From NCBI GenBank assembly GCA_025352325.1, contig JANXTR010000023.1, positions 124,001 through 188,000 of the forward strand: a stretch of DNA of 64,000 nt, in the 5' to 3' direction. Positions 53,526-64,000 of the stretch are shown one piece after another. Position numbers and translations under genes: made by a program. Origin of the DNA: Microbacteriaceae bacterium (lineage in GTDB: Bacteria; Actinomycetota; Actinomycetes; Actinomycetales; Microbacteriaceae). A model generated the notes under the pieces. That model was not told where the DNA came from, ran no database searches, and worked only from the letters and a program-made list of their open reading frames with translations. How positions within the stretch are numbered: position 1 is the first letter of the stretch; the number at the start of each line of letters is the position of its first letter.

Positions 53526-53601
53526 GGGGCCTTAGCTCAATTGGTAGAGCGCCTGCTTTGCAAGCAGGAGGTCAGGGGTTCGATTCCCCTAGGCTCCACC
53601 A
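53526..53601 (+). tRNA. tRNA-Ala (anticodon TGC); 3' end is the attachment site of an integrated element
   Basis: GGGGCCT...CTTTGCAAG anticodon arm...TTCGATT...AGGCTCCACCA. Confidence 0.97.
53580..53599. repeat. attL core (20 bp) inside tRNA-Ala
   Basis: TCGATTCCCCTAGGCTCCAC, identical to 59260-59279. Confidence 0.95.
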
Positions 53602-53667
53602 CACCCCCAAGAGTCCAGCAAATAGAGGGTTCTCGTACGAGTTGACCCCCCGAAATGGGCTTGTTTG

Positions 53668-53687
53668 GGCTTAATCGAAGGCTTAAG
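53668..53687. repeat. Left subterminal repeat, candidate integrase arm-type site
   Basis: GGCTTAATCGAAGGCTTAAG; 19/20 identical to 59187-59206. Confidence 0.8.
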
Positions 53688-53695
53688 GTCTTCGC

Positions 53696-54958
53696 ATGGG
53701 GCGCAGGGGTGAGGGATCGGTCTATTTCAGCAGCGCGTTGGGGAAGTGGCAGGCGTCCCACTCGTTCGTGGTCAACGGTAAGCGCGTGCGCATCGCGGGA
53801 ACCGGCAGCAGCGCGAAGGAAGCAATCGACAGGCGAGCTGCGAACTATCGCAAGTATCTGTCGAGGGAGCTCGTCCCGACCCCCGAGGTTCCGCTCAATG
53901 CGCCGCAGTCGGCACCGATCAACCTGACAACGGCTGAATATTTATTGGACTGGCTCGCTCGCATCGATCGAGAGAGGGTTCAACCGACGACCTTGCGTGG
54001 CTATCGCACTCGGATCGAGAAGCACCTGATCCCGCACATCGGCACGATTCCGCTCGTACGACTCTTGCCCGATGATGTCGAGCACCTGTTTCTTTCCACG
54101 CTCCCGAGCATTGTTGGTGCTGACGGGTCCCCCTTGCTCGGGGCTTCGGTGCGCCTCAATATCTGGAAGGTGTTGGACGCGGCCCTCACGAAAGCCGTCA
54201 CGAGAAACCTCCTCCTCCGTAACCCGATGAAGGGACTGGCCCCTCCCAAGCCGACGGTGAAGGACGAAGGTCTCGAAAAATATCTTTGGCTCCCAGAGTT
54301 CTTGCTCACCAAGCTCGAAGACGAACCCCTAGAAGTGCGTGTTCGGTGGCTCACGGCGATCCTGTTGGGGTTGCGACAGTCGGAACGACTCGGCTTGACA
54401 TGGGGCGGTTCCTTCACACACCTTGCGGGGTCGAAGCCGTTGAAGCTAACTGTTCGCCAGCAGATTGCTCGCCATGAAAGTGGTTCGGCGCTGGGTTCTG
54501 GTCTCTATCTCAAGCAGCAGACCAAATCGAAGCGGCATCGTTCGTTGATCGTCCCGCCCTACCTTGCGGCGCTCTTTCGTCAGCTGAAAGAGGAACAAGA
54601 CCAGCTGAGGGATGCGCCGACTTGGAAGCCGCTACCGGGGCTCGATGACCTCGTGTTCATGACAAAGACCGGGAAGCCAATCAGGCAGCAGAACGACTCT
54701 CGTGAGTGGCATCAACTTCTTGCCAAGTACTCGACGGACCCAAGGAAGCCCGTCCCCGACCTCCGTGGTCACGCTGCGCGTCACCTCCAGATCTCGTTGT
54801 TGTTGAAACTCGGCCAACCGATCGAGATGATCCGCGATATCGCCGGGCATGGTTCAGAGATCGTCACCCGCGAGGTCTACAAGCACACCCAAGCTCAGGC
54901 GACGGCGGTGCCTCTTGCTGTGCTCGAATCCGAAATGCGGAAGCGCGTAAACGACTAG
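53696..54958 (+). CDS. Tyrosine-type site-specific recombinase (integrase)
   Basis: MGRRGEGSVYFSSALGKWQA; LRHAARHLQ-type HxxR region and EVYKHTQ catalytic Tyr. Confidence 0.95.
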   Translation: MGRRGEGSVYFSSALGKWQASHSFVVNGKRVRIAGTGSSAKEAIDRRAANYRKYLSRELVPTPEVPLNAPQSAPINLTTAEYLLDWLARIDRERVQPTTLRGYRTRIEKHLIPHIGTIPLVRLLPDDVEHLFLSTLPSIVGADGSPLLGASVRLNIWKVLDAALTKAVTRNLLLRNPMKGLAPPKPTVKDEGLEKYLWLPEFLLTKLEDEPLEVRVRWLTAILLGLRQSERLGLTWGGSFTHLAGSKPLKLTVRQQIARHESGSALGSGLYLKQQTKSKRHRSLIVPPYLAALFRQLKEEQDQLRDAPTWKPLPGLDDLVFMTKTGKPIRQQNDSREWHQLLAKYSTDPRKPVPDLRGHAARHLQISLLLKLGQPIEMIRDIAGHGSEIVTREVYKHTQAQATAVPLAVLESEMRKRVND

Positions 54959-55006
54959 CCGATAGAGACCCCAGCAGATCAACCGTTGACCTGCGAAAGG
55001 AAAATT

Positions 55007-55360
55007 ATGTCTATCAACTACGGGTACTACTTGCCCCTCTCAACTGAACTCTTCGGTTCCGTTCGATTTCTCGATATCTCCCCCAAGAGTGAAGGGCCGG
55101 GGTCCGACGGCAAGCAAAAGGTAGACCGCGACGGCTTGCCTCAATGGGTCGTCTCGGCCTTGGTCAAGGTCCGCGACTCTAAGACGGAGACCGAGACCTT
55201 CACGTTGTCTGCGCCGGTGGAGGTCGCTGAACGAATCAACAAAGTCGAAGAGCTGACACCCATTCGTCTCGTGGGACTTTCTGGCGGGAAATGGTCCAGA
55301 GCCACCAGCGACAAGACTGAGTGGAGCTTCCAAATCACCGGCGTTGAGGTGGCGAAGTGA
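55007..55360 (+). CDS. Hypothetical protein (117 aa), possibly OB-fold / plasmid-type regulatory or ssDNA-binding protein
   Basis: ORF with good SD (GAAAGGA); beta-rich sequence GLPQWVVSALVKVRDSKTETETFTLSAPVEV...VGLSGGKWSRATSDKTEWSFQITGVEV. Confidence 0.7.
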   Translation: MSINYGYYLPLSTELFGSVRFLDISPKSEGPGSDGKQKVDRDGLPQWVVSALVKVRDSKTETETFTLSAPVEVAERINKVEELTPIRLVGLSGGKWSRATSDKTEWSFQITGVEVAK

Positions 55361-55665
55361 GCGCCGGTCTAGCAGGCTCGCTCGTCGGCAATGCTTGGCG
55401 GGTTTGGGCTAACGAGTGGGCGGGCCGCGGCGAGAACGTTCCCGCTCTCCACCACCTCCGCAACGGTGCCGGCGATGATGCTTTCTTCGCCGTCGACAGG
55501 GCAGAGGGCTTAGCCGAGACGTTCAAGCGACTCAACCAGCAGCAAGGCGAGCTGCGGTTCGTTCTGCGCGGCTCTTGGGCCCTGCCCCCGCTGAAGTGGC
55601 TCGGTCACTGGTCGGTCTTCTCGGTCTCGCGCAGCGGGTTCAGGTCGGAGGGATTTGAAGGTTAG
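55357..55665 (+). CDS. Hypothetical protein (102 aa)
   Basis: GTG start overlapping previous stop (GTGA), same operon. Confidence 0.65.
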   Translation: MSAGLAGSLVGNAWRVWANEWAGRGENVPALHHLRNGAGDDAFFAVDRAEGLAETFKRLNQQQGELRFVLRGSWALPPLKWLGHWSVFSVSRSGFRSEGFEG

Positions 55666-55698
55666 AAGAACCCAGCGGCTCAAGACGTTGGTTTGAGG

Positions 55699-55724
55699 AA
55701 AGGCGGGGCTACGGCCCCGCCTTT
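55699..55724. terminator. Perfect 11-bp hairpin between small-ORF operon and rep
   Basis: AAAGGCGGGGC-TACG-GCCCCGCCTTT. Confidence 0.75.
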
Positions 55725-55836
55725 GCCATGCGGTGCGAACGCGACCGTGGAAGCCGACGACGACCACAGGAGGAGGAGGCAAGACGGCAAGCGGTAGCTG
55801 AGCAGGGCGTCGTCTGAAGCTGCCGATAGAGAGGGC

Positions 55837-56922
55837 ATGAGTTCTAAAGATGAAAGCCCCACGGACGAAGGGCTTGTTATATGCGACAAAACTGCCCGCC
55901 CGACTTTTGAAACCTCGTTTGTGAGCAGCGCCAGAGTGGAGGCAGCCGCGCGTGAGCTTCCCGAGCTACCGTCCCGAACTGCCAATGACCTACAGCCGCG
56001 TTACTCGCTCACCCTGTCCCCGGCGTCGATTCAAATTTCTCGAAGGTCCGTTATCGCCAAACCGAAGGGTGAAAATTACCGACCGCGGCAAGCAATTGTT
56101 GGCTGGTCAAAAAAGTCCCGCGCCTCAATGGTTGCCCGTCTGTGCTCGCTGGACTACGAACCGGTCTTCGGTGGCGGGGTCCGTTCGCCCGCCATGATTA
56201 CGCTGACCTACCCGGGGGACTGGCTGCCGATTGCCCCCGACGGCGTGACAGCCAAGTCTCACCTGCGTTCCCTCGCCAAGAGGTACGAACGGCAGTTCGG
56301 AGAACCGCTTGCGGCGGTCTGGAAGCTCGAATTTCAACGACGAGGAGCACCGCACTTTCACCTGTTCTGTGCTCCACCGACCGGCGCCGGATTCCGCGAA
56401 TGGCTGTCGACGAATTGGACGGGCATTCTCGACCTCCAAGACGAGGACGAACGGCGCAAGCACCTCCTAGCGGGCACTGGGCTCGATTACGACACAGGCA
56501 TGCGGTCGACTGACAGCAAGCGCGTGGCGGTCTATTTCAGCAAACACGGGTCGGCGAACTTCGGAGACAAGGAGTATCAAAATCGACCTCCGCAAGCGTG
56601 GCTGGAGTCGGGCTCGATTGGTCGTTTCTGGGGGTACTGGGGTTTGAAGCCCGCTCTCTTTCCGGTCGAGGTGTCAGACGAAGTTGCCGTTCACGCCGCG
56701 CGAATATTGCGACGCTGGTCCCGAGCCAGTGGCAAGCCCCGAAGAGTGGTCGTTTGGCGCGTCAACCAGAAGACTGGCGAGCTGCGAAAGCGTCACGTGC
56801 GACGCCGGACTCGGCGTCTTCCAGCGATCTCGGGATTTGTGGCCGTCAACGACGGGTCAGCGATGGGGAGCGCCTTGGCTCGAGCCCTCGCGCTCTCTCT
56901 AGATGAACGGAAGCAACGTTGA
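55837..56922 (+). CDS. HUH-family replication initiator (rolling-circle Rep, G2P/ORF2-like)
   Basis: Motif 1 PAMITLTYPGDW, HUH motif GAPHFHLFCAP, Tyr motif VAVYFSKHGSA. Confidence 0.85.
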   Translation: MSSKDESPTDEGLVICDKTARPTFETSFVSSARVEAAARELPELPSRTANDLQPRYSLTLSPASIQISRRSVIAKPKGENYRPRQAIVGWSKKSRASMVARLCSLDYEPVFGGGVRSPAMITLTYPGDWLPIAPDGVTAKSHLRSLAKRYERQFGEPLAAVWKLEFQRRGAPHFHLFCAPPTGAGFREWLSTNWTGILDLQDEDERRKHLLAGTGLDYDTGMRSTDSKRVAVYFSKHGSANFGDKEYQNRPPQAWLESGSIGRFWGYWGLKPALFPVEVSDEVAVHAARILRRWSRASGKPRRVVVWRVNQKTGELRKRHVRRRTRRLPAISGFVAVNDGSAMGSALARALALSLDERKQR

Positions 56923-57834
56923 CGAGCCCGAGTCGAGCGCCGTCTCGATCGCTGTCTTATAGACATTCTCGTCCGGCAGGGTCACGTTGTTGAATGCCTC
57001 TTGAACTTTGTAGACCGTCGTGGACCGTTCCGTATCTTGCTTCAGCGGGACGGCGCTCCCGTCCTCGATGGGCACAAACATGTCGAGGTCGTACGCCATG
57101 AATGTGATGGACGCGGGTTGAAGGGCGTAGCGGACTAGCCCGTCGGCCCCTCCAAGTCGACGCATGATTCGGTCGTATACGGGGGTGGGGCAAACAAAGA
57201 AGAGTCCCTTGCGGCACAGTTCCTCCCGCTGAAGAACCTGCCCCTTGTAGATCAACTGGGGCAAAATTCTCTTGTTTACGTTTTCCCAGTTGAGCCCGAC
57301 CGAGGATTGAACAATGTCGCGCTCTTCCGTAAGAAGTGCCGCTCTGCTGGCCCGGTAGTTGCCCGTCGTGTCGATCGTCTGAACTTCGATTGCGACGAAC
57401 TCGACGAGGTTTCCTTCAGCATCGAGAAGCGCCAAGATCCAGTCGACGAAATAGGAATTGATGCCGTCCTTCTGCGGCAGCCGCAACTCACCACCCCATC
57501 GCTTACCAAACACGGCAACGGTCGGCTGGCCAGACTGTCGGGCGTCGGCAACAGCCTTGCGCCCCGGGCTTAGGGGAAGCCCCTTTGAAAAGGCGCGGTC
57601 GGCCACATCTCGAAGGATTCGATAGTCGCCTGCGTAAAGCCGAATCGGACAACAGATGACCGGTGCTGAGGTCACCGGCTTGATGGAGCAAGCTCCGGAT
57701 ACCAAGCCGTCGCTGAGTGTCTTCTCGCAACGCTCGCCCAGAAACGGGCAGTGAAGGCTGTGGGCCGCGGCGACGGCTTCTGGTGAACGGTCTCCGGCGC
57801 GGTATCCGAATATCTCGTAGACCGTTCCAGCCAA
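56899..57834 (-). CDS. NotI-family type II restriction endonuclease
   Basis: YEIFGYRAGD; HCPFLGERCEK...SGACSI cysteine cluster; GGELRLPQKDGINSYFVDWILALLD...VAIEVQTIDTTGNYR nuclease core; TTG start; adjacent to the methyltransferase. Confidence 0.88.
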   Translation of the reverse strand: MAGTVYEIFGYRAGDRSPEAVAAAHSLHCPFLGERCEKTLSDGLVSGACSIKPVTSAPVICCPIRLYAGDYRILRDVADRAFSKGLPLSPGRKAVADARQSGQPTVAVFGKRWGGELRLPQKDGINSYFVDWILALLDAEGNLVEFVAIEVQTIDTTGNYRASRAALLTEERDIVQSSVGLNWENVNKRILPQLIYKGQVLQREELCRKGLFFVCPTPVYDRIMRRLGGADGLVRYALQPASITFMAYDLDMFVPIEDGSAVPLKQDTERSTTVYKVQEAFNNVTLPDENVYKTAIETALDSGSSTLLPFI

Positions 57835-57835
57835 T

Positions 57836-59041
57836 TCAGACCACCCGACGCAGTTCGGCGCGGCTGACGCCGAGGGCGGCAGAGACAGACTGACCGACGG
57901 CGGCTGCCAAGAGCGGGGGCACGGCGTTCCCGACCTGTTCGTACTGGTCCACCCGAGACCCTGTGAACCTGTAGGTGTCAGGGAAGGACTGGATCCGTGC
58001 GGCTTCGCGGACCGTGAACGCTCGCTCTTGTCCGTAGTGGAAATATGCGCCCCAGTGCGGGTCGCACTTAGTCAGGATCGTCGATGCGAGGCCGTCAGGA
58101 TGAACCCGTCCGTAGCGCTTGGTGTGGTCTGAGCGCCGCGCGTCCTTCATGCCCTTCGGCAAGAGGTCGAAAGGGATGTCCGTCCAGTTGCCACCCTGCG
58201 GGATGTGCCCGAGTCGATCAAGGTTTATCTTGGTCAGCCGAGCGGCCTCGTGGTTGTGGACCCCGTCGCTACCGCCCCGCAACGCGCGCTGGTAGTCATT
58301 CGTCGCGGCCGTGCGATAGGGCTTTACAGACTCCCCCGCTTCACCGTTCAGAAGGACCGGCAAATCGTCGATCGCTTGACGAACTGAGGTGAAGGACGGC
58401 AGTTCAACCGACTTCGGCAACGCGACGATGTTGCGCCCCTCGAACCGCGAGGTGAAGTTGACGCGCATGGGAGCATGCCGGATCGGGTCAGGGAAGGCTG
58501 TGATGGCCTCCGCGCCGCCGCGGAGGGCCAAGACGATCGTCCTCCACCGTGTCTGCGGGACTCCGTAGTGCGGCGCGTAGAGGATCTGAACGTCCGCGCG
58601 GTAGTCAAGCTCCTCAAGAGACTGAAGAATCGCGGCGAGCGTAGCTCCGCCCTCAAACGACACGAGACCGGGAACGTTCTCGATGAGTACGGCACGAGGC
58701 TCGAACTCCTCGACAAACCGCAGGTACTCCTTGAAGAGGTGATTCCGTCGATCATCGGTAGACCGGAGCGGGGCGTTGATAGAGAAACCTTGGCACGGAG
58801 GGCCGCCAGCCATGAGATCGAGATCGCCCTTGTTCAGACCCAGCGACTTGCGAACTTTGGCCGCGTCGACGGTTCGAATATCTCGGCTATCCACCATGGC
58901 CTCTGGGTGGTTGAGGGCGAAAGTCGCCGCATAGGTCGGGATGAGTTCGTTGGCGTAAAGCGTCCGGAAACCGGCCTCGCTCAGACCTTCAGAGAGTCCG
59001 CCAGCCCCGGCAAAAAGGTCGACCATCGTGAGTTCGGACAT
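57836..59041 (-). CDS. DNA (cytosine-5-)-methyltransferase
   Basis: Motif I DLFAGAGGLSEGL, motif IV GGPPCQGFS, motif VI AVLIENVPG, motif X QVGNAVPPLLAAAVG. Confidence 0.96.
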   Translation of the reverse strand: MSELTMVDLFAGAGGLSEGLSEAGFRTLYANELIPTYAATFALNHPEAMVDSRDIRTVDAAKVRKSLGLNKGDLDLMAGGPPCQGFSINAPLRSTDDRRNHLFKEYLRFVEEFEPRAVLIENVPGLVSFEGGATLAAILQSLEELDYRADVQILYAPHYGVPQTRWRTIVLALRGGAEAITAFPDPIRHAPMRVNFTSRFEGRNIVALPKSVELPSFTSVRQAIDDLPVLLNGEAGESVKPYRTAATNDYQRALRGGSDGVHNHEAARLTKINLDRLGHIPQGGNWTDIPFDLLPKGMKDARRSDHTKRYGRVHPDGLASTILTKCDPHWGAYFHYGQERAFTVREAARIQSFPDTYRFTGSRVDQYEQVGNAVPPLLAAAVGQSVSAALGVSRAELRRVV

Positions 59042-59126
59042 GCGTGAGCCCCTTCGTTACTTGAGAGTACGGGCGAAAGATCGCTTGAGTGGTAGCTGCC
59101 TAAGCGTGTCAATGACAGCCCAACTG

Positions 59127-59154
59127 AACTTGGCCATACGAATATGGCCAAGTT
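59127..59154. promoter_or_regulatory. Perfect 12-bp inverted repeat upstream of MTase
   Basis: AACTTGGCCATA-CGAA-TATGGCCAAGTT. Confidence 0.8.
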
Positions 59155-59186
59155 AGCGTCCACGACCGACCTTTCCGATGCTGTTC

Positions 59187-59206
59187 GGCTTAATTGAAGG
59201 CTTAAG
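59187..59206. repeat. Right subterminal repeat, candidate integrase arm-type site
   Basis: GGCTTAATTGAAGGCTTAAG. Confidence 0.8.
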
Positions 59207-59259
59207 TCCTCCACGGGTGAGGGCAAGACCCTACCAAATAGGGGAAGTGTGCAAATATG

Positions 59260-59279
59260 TCGATTCCCCTAGGCTCCAC
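59260..59279. repeat. attR core (20 bp)
   Basis: TCGATTCCCCTAGGCTCCAC. Confidence 0.95.
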
Positions 59280-59421: not shown

Positions 59422-60837
59422 ATGCCCCCCGCCGCTGAGGATTCCTATCGCGATGCCCTGACCCGCGCCGAGGGGCACGTGCTCGACTGGCTCGGCTCCG
59501 TTAACTCGCGGCACGTCGGGCCTACCGCGACGGTCGAGCAACTGACGGATGCCTTCGGCGGCCCGTTGCAGGACGACCCGATCGATCCTGGCGCGGTGAT
59601 CGACGAACTCGCGCGGACCGCGGAGCCCGGCCTGATGGCGATGCCGTCTGGCAAGTTCTTCGGCTGGGTGATCGGCGGCACCCTGCCAGCCGCGCTTGGC
59701 GCCGACTGGATGGTGAGCGCGTGGGACCAGAACGCGGCGATGCGACTGGCGACTCCGGCCACCGCGGCCGCCGAGGAGGTCGCCGGGCAGTGGCTGCTCA
59801 AGCTGCTGCACCTGCCCGCGTCATCCGCCGTCGGATTCACGACAGGAGGCACGACGGCCAACTTCGTCGGGCTCGCCGCCGGCAGGCAGTTCGTGCTCGA
59901 TCAAGCGGGCTGGGACCTCGAGGGCGAGGGGATGAGCGGCGCCCCGAAGATCACCGTGCTGGTCGGCGAGGAGCGTCACACCTCGGTCGACATGGCCCTG
60001 CGCTACCTCGGCTTCGGACACGGGCGCAACGTCGCCGCAGACGACCAGGGCCGAATCCTGCCCGATGCCCTCGCTGAGGCGCTTTCCGAGATCGACGGGC
60101 CCGTGATCGTGGCCCTCCAGGCGGGCAATCTGCACTCGGGCGCCTTCGATCCGATGCGCGAGTGCATCGACCTCGCGCACGCGAGCGGAGCGTGGGTGCA
60201 CGTCGACGGCGCGTTCGGGCTATGGGCCGCGGTCAGCGACGAGTGGAAGGCCGCGACCGACGGGCTCGAGCTGGCCGACTCCTGGGCGACCGACGCGCAC
60301 AAGACACTCAACGTGCCCTACGACTGCGGGGTCGCGATCGTGTCGCGCCCCGACGTGCTGGAGAAGGTCTTCGGCGCCCGGCCCGCCTACCTGATCCAGG
60401 CGGATGACGGCCCAAGCGACCCGTTCGCACGCGTCCCCGAGTTCTCGCGTCGCGCGCGCGGCGTCCCGGTCTGGGCGGCGCTCCGTCAACTCGGCCGTCG
60501 CGGGACCATCGAGCTGGTCGAGCGCCTTGCCGCGCACGCCCGAGCCCTCGCAGACGGCATCGCCGCGCTGCCAGGCGCCGAGGTGCTCAACGACGTGGTG
60601 TTCACGCAGGTCTCGCTCGCGTTCGGCTCCGACGCGCGCACGCGGGCCGTTACTCAGCGCCTGATGGCCGACGGCGTGGTCTGGATGTCGGGGTCCAAGT
60701 GGCAGGGCCGGGACATCCTGCGCATCTCCGTCAGCAACTGGTCAACCGATGAGGCGGATGTCGCGGAGGCCATCGTCGCCGTGGCGGCCGCGATCGGGGC
60801 GGTCGACGAGATGGCCGACGGAATGACCAACGCCTGA
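59422..60837 (+). CDS. Pyridoxal-dependent decarboxylase / aminotransferase (group II decarboxylase-like)
   Basis: TTGGTTANFVGLAAGRQF; HVDGAFGLWAAVSDEWK; SWATDAHKTLNVPYDCG. Confidence 0.9.
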   Translation: MPPAAEDSYRDALTRAEGHVLDWLGSVNSRHVGPTATVEQLTDAFGGPLQDDPIDPGAVIDELARTAEPGLMAMPSGKFFGWVIGGTLPAALGADWMVSAWDQNAAMRLATPATAAAEEVAGQWLLKLLHLPASSAVGFTTGGTTANFVGLAAGRQFVLDQAGWDLEGEGMSGAPKITVLVGEERHTSVDMALRYLGFGHGRNVAADDQGRILPDALAEALSEIDGPVIVALQAGNLHSGAFDPMRECIDLAHASGAWVHVDGAFGLWAAVSDEWKAATDGLELADSWATDAHKTLNVPYDCGVAIVSRPDVLEKVFGARPAYLIQADDGPSDPFARVPEFSRRARGVPVWAALRQLGRRGTIELVERLAAHARALADGIAALPGAEVLNDVVFTQVSLAFGSDARTRAVTQRLMADGVVWMSGSKWQGRDILRISVSNWSTDEADVAEAIVAVAAAIGAVDEMADGMTNA

Positions 60838-60845
60838 CGGCCCTG

Positions 60846-61136
60846 TCAGCTCCTGACGACGAGTTCGAGCCGCAGGAGTGAGGCGCGGATCGATCGCACG
60901 CTCCAGCGCGTGACGAGCAGGCCGCCCAGGTATCCCGCCACCAGAAGGGGATCGAGCACTCCCGGTCCGAGCCGTGGACCGAACGCGCACACCGCCGCCA
61001 GCGCGACCAGCGCGCCGACGATCGGCCAGTCGCGCGCGGCGACCCAGGTCACGCGTTCGGCCAGCGACAGGGTGGGCAACAGCGTCATCCTGACGATCTC
61101 GGCGCCGTGTCGGGGTAGGGGACCAGTCAGACTCAC
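60846..61136 (-). CDS. Hypothetical small membrane protein
   Basis: ORF with hydrophobic segments, divergent from the APC transporter gene. Confidence 0.55.
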
Positions 61137-61229
61137 TCAGTGAGCGTCCGTCCGCCCGCTTCGGCACGGGGTGATCCTCACGGAATCCTGACGGTGCCGC
61201 GCCGAATCCTCGCACCGATCAATGACACC

Positions 61230-63158
<1,929 letters not shown>

Positions 63159-63191
63159 CTTTCTCGCGCCCGCCCTCCGGGTGAATCCGCT

Positions 63192-63779
63192 CTAGTCGGT
63201 GGCGGGCGTCGGTGTGACGTCGGGCTCGCCCGGGTCGCCGAGGTCTTCAATCCAGAGGTCATCGTCGGCGCGCAGGGTCTGCCAGGCGGCATAGAGGACA
63301 CCGAGTGCCGCAACCGCGCCGAGGCTGATCAGGATGTACTTGCCAGGGCCCGACTTCTTGGGCGGCTCGACGATGTGCACCGTGCGACCGATCCGCTCGT
63401 TGACCGAGTTGGCCGCAGACGTCGCCTGCTTGAGTGCGGCGCGGATCCGCGGGTCCTTCGCAACCTCGACCATGGCGAGGGCGGAGGCGATTGCTCCCGA
63501 GATCGCGGGGAGGACGTCATCCGAGAGGCGCTCGCCAGCGCGGGAGGCGGCGGAGCGACCCGACGCGGCGACTGAGGCGACGACGGGACGCACCCGGCTG
63601 TCGTAGCTGTCACGGGCGCGGGGGCCGACCTCTTCGCGGGCGTAGTTCGCGGCTTGGCGACGGGCGTCCTTGAGAACGGCGCTAGCGTGCTCGAGCGCGT
63701 CGCGCTGCTCGTCCCACAGCTCTTCGGCCGAGCGCTTGAGCTTGTTCAGTTCCTTTTGACGCTTGCGTGACAATGCCAT
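63192..63779 (-). CDS. Hypothetical membrane-anchored coiled-coil protein
   Basis: MALSRKRQKELNKLKRSAEELWDEQRDALEHA..., C-terminal TM. Confidence 0.65.
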   Translation of the reverse strand: MALSRKRQKELNKLKRSAEELWDEQRDALEHASAVLKDARRQAANYAREEVGPRARDSYDSRVRPVVASVAASGRSAASRAGERLSDDVLPAISGAIASALAMVEVAKDPRIRAALKQATSAANSVNERIGRTVHIVEPPKKSGPGKYILISLGAVAALGVLYAAWQTLRADDDLWIEDLGDPGEPDVTPTPATD

Positions 63780-63904
63780 GTCGACCTCCGTCGTGGTGTG
63801 TCTTGAGAACATGCCCATCCTGCCATGCAGCCCGCGCGTCGGCGATGGATTCCCCTGGGCGGTCCCTGGGAGCAGGGTCAATGCCCGCATGACAGAATGA
63901 CCGC

Positions 63905-64000
63905 ATGGCTCTTCACACCGCGGTCGCGACCTTCCACACCAACCACGGCGATATCCGTGTCAACCTCTTCGGCAACCACGCCCCGATCACCGTCGACAAC
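63905..64000 (+). CDS. Cyclophilin-type peptidylprolyl isomerase (5' partial)
   Basis: MALHTAVATFHTNHGDIRVNLFGNHAPITVDN, runs off window. Confidence 0.88.
   Translation, partial: MALHTAVATFHTNHGDIRVNLFGNHAPITVDN

What the first reader, a model, noticed from the sequence alone, without database searches (positions are those of the whole stretch)
53580..59279. Compact tRNA-Ala element pairing an HUH Rep and tyrosine integrase with an R-M cargo
Seen directly: 20-bp direct repeats (TCGATTCCCCTAGGCTCCAC) at the tRNA-Ala 3' end and about 5.7 kb downstream, an integrase abutting attL, two small co-oriented ORFs, an HUH Rep, and a convergent MTase/REase pair. I see no relaxase-translocase set, no capsid or packaging genes, no recognisable Xis and no conventional repressor. 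A self-excising, rolling-circle-replicating minimal element whose main cargo is an addictive R-M module is an uncommon layout. It could be a satellite, an integrated cryptic RC plasmid, or an undescribed integrative mobilizable family.
Basis: partly seen in the sequence, partly recalled or inferred. Interest (0 to 1): 0.8.

Follow-up and report, generated by a model that had tools for sequence, protein, structure and literature searches.

The report
Minimal integrating element carrying restriction-modification genes
A 5.7-kb DNA element parked next to a tRNA gene of an actinobacterium carries only genes that look able to cut it in and out, to copy it as a circle, and to run a DNA-cutting defence system; five relatives in other actinobacteria share this core and four of them carry a different defence system each, so it belongs to a real family of small mobile elements.

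Summary
Anatomy confirmed: 20-bp repeats at 53580 and 59260, intact integrase, two overlapping small ORFs, intact HUH Rep, C5-MTase and NotI-type REase. Correction: MTase and REase are tandem and converge on Rep, not on each other. New: arm-type repeats inside both ends, and an empty tRNA-Ala site in a same-genus genome.

Five further elements with the same backbone (Int, ORF1, ORF2, replication gene) sit at tRNA-Ser genes. Four carry R-M-type cargo, each a different enzyme combination; the smallest (3.7 kb) has none. The four HUH Reps form one clade (100/99); two elements have an HTH_36 protein instead. ORF1, the best-conserved protein, is a remote relative of the AICE SCO3933/Pra regulators. 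GCCGATA lies upstream of ORF1 in 6/6 and of rep in 4/4 (shuffles: at most 4 of 10).

Best reading: a family of minimal, Tra-less, AICE-like integrative rolling-circle elements that mostly carry R-M systems; excision, replication and transfer are inferred, not shown. It fails the AICE definition (no FtsK-type Tra, no RepSA) and shows no relaxase or capsid gene. The kind is known; I found no description of this backbone in the literature searched. New variant of a known kind.

The parts
53526..53601 (+). tRNA-Ala(TGC), integration target; stays intact at attL
53580..53599 (+). attL core repeat
53665..53687 (+). arm-type repeat, left (paired GGCTTAA units)
   Evidence: function inferred
53696..54958 (+). 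tyrosine integrase; R227, H359-x-x-R362, H385, Y395 kept in three siblings
54958..54965 (+). GCCGATAG motif 49 nt before ORF1
55007..55360 (+). ORF1, remote Pra/SCO3933-type regulator relative, best-conserved backbone protein
55357..55665 (+). ORF2, overlaps ORF1, conserved pair, function unknown
55699..55726 (.). GC-rich perfect hairpin between ORF2 and rep
55822..55829 (+). GCCGATAG motif 7 nt before rep start
55837..56922 (+). HUH Rep (PF23343), HFH 173-175 and Y233xxK236 kept
56899..57834 (-). NotI-family type II REase
57836..59041 (-). C5 cytosine MTase
59184..59206 (+). arm-type repeat, right
   Evidence: function inferred
59260..59279 (+). attR core repeat

Best explanation
The segment is one member of a family of minimal integrative elements. 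Shown by sequence: a tyrosine integrase beside a tRNA 3' end, core repeats at both ends, element-specific arm repeats inside both ends, an adjacent ORF1-ORF2 pair, a replication gene, and (in five of six) a differing R-M-type cargo. Inferred mechanism: Int recombines attL and attR into a circle (attP = 59184-59279 joined to 53600-53687) and restores the empty site; HUH Rep nicks the circle and copies it by rolling circle; ORF1, a remote Pra/SCO3933-type protein, with ORF2 controls two promoters marked by GCCGATA (before ORF1 and before rep), so that excision and replication stay off until induced; the element then integrates again or is moved by a helper (a TraB-type conjugative element or a phage). 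The R-M pair makes loss costly and restricts competing DNA.
For: Ends and genes. Empty site in same-genus G001; sibling L046 site empty in G1099. Five further elements: L008/L045, L046, L063, L062, L076 (119-121). Their R-M-type cargo: HNH + C5-MTase + Vsr, and TdeIII-type REase + D12 MTase; N6/N4 MTase + REase_II; EcoRI-type MTase + GmrSD-N/HNH. HUH Rep clade 100/99. ORF1 linked to SCO3933-type proteins encoded directly before FtsK-type Tra in AICEs, reported as Pra homologues (PMC8584621). GCCGATA in 10 of 10 upstream stretches, at most 4 of 10 in 500 shuffles. A plasmid with a related Rep, pTSC1, replicates in Streptomyces (PMC3212956).
Against: No circle, reads or excision product were examined. 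No Xis is recognisable. The ORF1-Pra kinship is remote (E=0.005 for one sibling; profile comparison with few sequences). No transfer gene is present, and the host assembly shows no TraB-like protein and no HK97 capsid gene. Rolling-circle mode rests on HUH motifs; neither origin nor nick site was located.
Confidence: 0.72

Rival explanations
1. A cryptic rolling-circle plasmid that gained an integrase and now persists mainly by integration, with no special mobility.
For: Rep relatives are small free actinobacterial plasmids; gene set is plasmid-sized.
Against: Six elements share Int + ORF1 + ORF2 with conserved order of ORF1-ORF2, and ORF1 has no match in plasmids; HUH Reps of the elements form their own clade, so this would be an old, stable family, not one capture.
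Confidence: 0.15
2. A phage satellite that is induced and packaged by a helper phage.
For: Size, integrase, replication gene and defence cargo resemble PICMI-like satellites; Reps of inovirus-like prophages in the same bacterial family are distant relatives.
Against: No phage-record match for Rep or ORF1, no packaging or capsid-remodelling gene, inovirus Reps fall outside the element clade. IMG/VR could not be searched.
Confidence: 0.1
3. An integrative mobilizable element in which HUH Rep also acts as relaxase for a helper conjugative system.
For: Firmicute IMEs use RCR-initiator-type relaxases, some without coupling protein (PMC5704250).
Against: Rep belongs to a different HUH family, close relatives are plasmid initiators; no relaxase family match; actinobacterial TraB transfer needs no relaxase.
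Confidence: 0.1
4. A dead remnant of an AICE or plasmid.
For: No Tra, no Xis.
Against: All genes open, catalytic residues kept, att and arm sites kept, same reduced set in six elements of two bacterial families.
Confidence: 0.05

Closest known systems
AICEs (pSAM2, SCO3937-type)
   Same: Integrase at a tRNA 3' end in most, HUH initiator, Pra/SCO3933-type regulator
   Different: No FtsK-type Tra, no Spd, no Xis, no KorSA; Rep is not RepSA; 3.7-6.8 kb
Small actinobacterial plasmids pCAZ1, pTSC1, pDYM4.3k, pREC02
   Same: HUH Rep about 38-53% identical over the matched part
   Different: Free circles, mostly with FtsK-type Tra or ParA; no integrase annotated, no ORF1 match in plasmids
[quoted passage not shown]
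   Same: AICE-like elements that lack tra or rep
   Different: Not shown to share this ORF1-ORF2 core or R-M cargo; sequences not compared here
PICI/PICMI phage satellites
   Same: Compact integrase plus replication element with defence cargo
   Different: No satellite regulators or packaging functions seen; helper dependence untested
IMEs with RCR-type relaxases (Firmicutes)
   Same: Integrase plus HUH protein; R-M cargo known in some
   Different: Different HUH family; no relaxase activity, oriT or coupling protein shown

Membership tests
AICE | site-specific integrase with att repeats, here at a tRNA 3' end | tested here: met
AICE | FtsK/SpoIIIE-type Tra protein | tested here: not met
   no such ORF in 53580-59279
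AICE | RepSA, RepAM or Prim-Pol initiator | tested here: not met
   PF20199 13.1 bits against cut-off 34; best match PF23343
AICE | Pra-type activator | tested here: inconclusive
   remote: NF051478 E=0.005 for a sibling, hhalign 95%
AICE | Xis and KorSA-type GntR repressor | tested here: not met
   no such ORF found
Integrated rolling-circle plasmid | HUH initiator with HUH and Tyr motifs intact | tested here: met
   HFH 173-175, Y233xxK236
Integrated rolling-circle plasmid | double-strand origin and ssDNA intermediate | not tested
   origin not located; needs experiment
Canonical IME | relaxase | tested here: not met
   no relaxase family match
Canonical IME | oriT | not tested
   not searched
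Phage satellite | induction and packaging by a helper phage | not testable with these tools
   only indirect: no phage-record match of Rep or ORF1
Type II R-M system | paired MTase and REase with active-site residues | tested here: met
   PCQ and ENV motifs in the translation; activity untested

The most novel reading that the evidence does not exclude
A not yet described family of minimal integrative elements of actinobacteria that serve mainly as carriers of R-M systems: a fixed Int/ORF1/ORF2 core with a GCCGATA-marked two-promoter switch, two interchangeable replication modules (HUH or HTH_36), and exchange of the R-M pair as the main variation, without transfer genes of their own.
Probability: 0.5. 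Interest if true: 0.75.

Novelty: new variant of a known kind. Interest (0 to 1): 0.62.

Why it matters
Complete R-M systems move between genomes often, yet a survey found them on only 10.5% of plasmids and on practically no phages (PMC4176335); a small vehicle that carries R-M-type genes in five of six cases would help explain how they travel. The family also offers a model of an integrating replicon with three or four backbone genes, and a conserved small regulator pair with a defined DNA motif, which would make the action of Pra-type proteins directly testable.

Tried and rejected
IMG/VR scans failed each time, so viral-contig distribution is unknown. ORF1 and ORF2 had no Pfam, PADLOC or significant PHROG match. 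The ORF1 model is poor (pLDDT 56; SSB/OB-fold proteins lead the list, but best E is 0.03 with TM below 0.5): a lead only. The ORF2 model (pLDDT 74) matched nothing convincing. GCCGATA as the HUH nick site: rejected, since it stays before ORF1 in the two elements without HUH Rep. GCCGATA as a sigma-28/WhiG -10 box (GCCGATAA, own knowledge): no TAAA box at the usual spacing by eye, left open. A third att copy beyond the decarboxylase gene was sought and not found. A Rhodococcus replicative element looked close by title but is a 75-80 kb element without island features.

Full report
OBSERVATION. The 20-bp repeat is exact, occurs twice in 64 kb, and its left copy is the 3' end of tRNA-Ala(TGC). 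Between the copies lie integrase, ORF1, ORF2, HUH Rep, a NotI-type REase and a C5-MTase. MTase and REase are tandem on the minus strand and converge on Rep. GC is 60.0% inside, 65.3% and 68.7% outside. Inside each end sits a second direct repeat, 53665-53687 and 59184-59206 (91%), built of paired GGCTTAA units. Catalytic residues of Int, Rep, MTase and REase are kept (residue roles from general knowledge of these families).

EMPTY SITES. In same-genus genome G001 the tRNA-Ala is followed directly by host genes; window 61012-63999 aligns at 79% to the stretch just downstream of its tRNA, and the element is absent, as is the decarboxylase gene 59422-60837 that lies outside attR in the window. 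For sibling L046, relative G1099 has the same tRNA-Ser followed within about 140 bp by the same downstream gene.

A FAMILY. Rep and ORF1 searches gave five further elements. L008 (= L045, Micrococcales MAG): 6.8 kb at tRNA-Ser(GGA): Int, Vsr, an unknown ORF, ORF1, ORF2, Rep, HNH protein, C5-MTase. L046 (closed 1.34-Mb chromosome): 6.0 kb at tRNA-Ser(GGA): Int, D12 MTase, TdeIII-type REase, Rep, ORF2, ORF1; its attR is weak, 74% over 23 nt. L063: 5.7 kb, same gene order as the window, with N6/N4 MTase and a PADLOC type II REase; its target looks like a tRNA-Ser 3' end at the contig end and was not called by ARAGORN. L062: 3.7 kb at tRNA-Ser(GCT): Int, HTH_36 protein, ORF2, ORF1, no cargo. L076: 5.6 kb at tRNA-Ser(GCT): the same with EcoRI-type MTase and a GmrSD-N/HNH protein. 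All six have core repeats and, inside both ends, short repeats whose sequence differs from element to element. L062 and L076 come from another family of the same class. The elements are rare: 3 of 343 genomes of the window's family carry the HUH form, and 3 of 392 carry ORF1 in a search centred on G537.

CARGO. Five of six carry an R-M-type pair, each from different enzyme families. None was chosen for cargo. Against a 10.5% plasmid base rate (PMC4176335) five or more of six has probability about 7e-5; that base rate is for other elements and the six are related, so this is a guide only. The HNH (L008) and GmrSD-N/HNH (L076) partners are assigned by neighbourhood and domain, not by activity.

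BACKBONE. The four HUH Reps form one clade (100/99), apart from actinobacterial plasmid Reps and from inovirus-like Reps. The two L062-type elements have an HTH_36 protein in its place, which I take as an alternative replication protein (inference). ORF1 is better conserved (54-62% to the window) than Int (30-41%) or ORF2 (19-33%). Weak ORF1 relatives in larger actinobacterial genomes are SCO3933-family proteins (NF051478, about 1e-18, though under the curated cut-off) encoded directly before an FtsK-type Tra in elements that also carry a RepSA-type gene (gene order read in L065 and L067; families scanned in L067). SCO3933 is reported as a Pra homologue (PMC8584621). Sibling L046's ORF1 itself hits NF051478 at E=0.005, and profile comparison gives 95%. 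The link is remote but agrees with gene context.

MOTIF. GCCGATA occurs in all ten 80-nt stretches upstream of ORF1 (6) and rep; shuffles reach at most 4 of 10. Before ORF1 it begins 46-56 nt from the start and is followed in most elements by an inverted repeat (by eye); before rep it ends 7-8 nt from the ATG, which would suit a -10 box of a leaderless mRNA (inference). It remains before ORF1 where HUH Rep is absent, so it belongs to the ORF1-ORF2 circuit rather than to HUH nicking.

HOW IT LIKELY WORKS. Shown: the parts and their conservation. Inferred: excision by Int to a circle, rolling-circle copying by Rep, control by ORF1/ORF2 at two GCCGATA sites, stabilisation and competitor exclusion by R-M, and transfer by a helper. 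The host assembly shows FtsK and an EccC-like protein but no TraB-like one, and no HK97 capsid gene, so no helper was identified.

KNOWN KINDS. It works like a stripped AICE but fails the AICE definition (no Tra, no RepSA). [quoted passage not shown] The literature searches found no description of this backbone; the library lacks most subscription papers, so novelty is provisional. Family names of the G genomes are withheld; Microbacteriaceae for the window's family is my inference.

Noticed in passing
L047, L048, L050 (also L049): Inovirus-like prophages (Zot-like ATPase by eye, large adsorption-type protein, SSB in L048 by Pfam) whose rep gene is split between the two ends in L047, L048 and L050, so that circularisation would rejoin it; junctions in L047 and L048 look like actinobacterial dif sites. 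Rep would be whole only in the excised circle.
   Followed up: partly
window 59422-60837: PLP-dependent decarboxylase gene (by eye) just outside attR, absent from the same locus in same-genus genome G001; a separate gain or loss.
   Followed up: partly
L010 15130-15588: Weak ORF1 relative about 6 kb downstream of a Rep of the same family in Actinomycetospora, in a region without a called tRNA.
   Followed up: no
L015 (Streptosporangium plasmid NZ_CP109466.1): The 16-kb record looks like a head-to-tail dimer of an about 8.1-kb plasmid: the same protein accessions appear twice.
   Followed up: no
window 55699-55726: Perfect GC-rich hairpin between ORF2 and rep; L008 and L063 also have strong hairpins there. 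Terminator or origin, unknown.
   Followed up: partly
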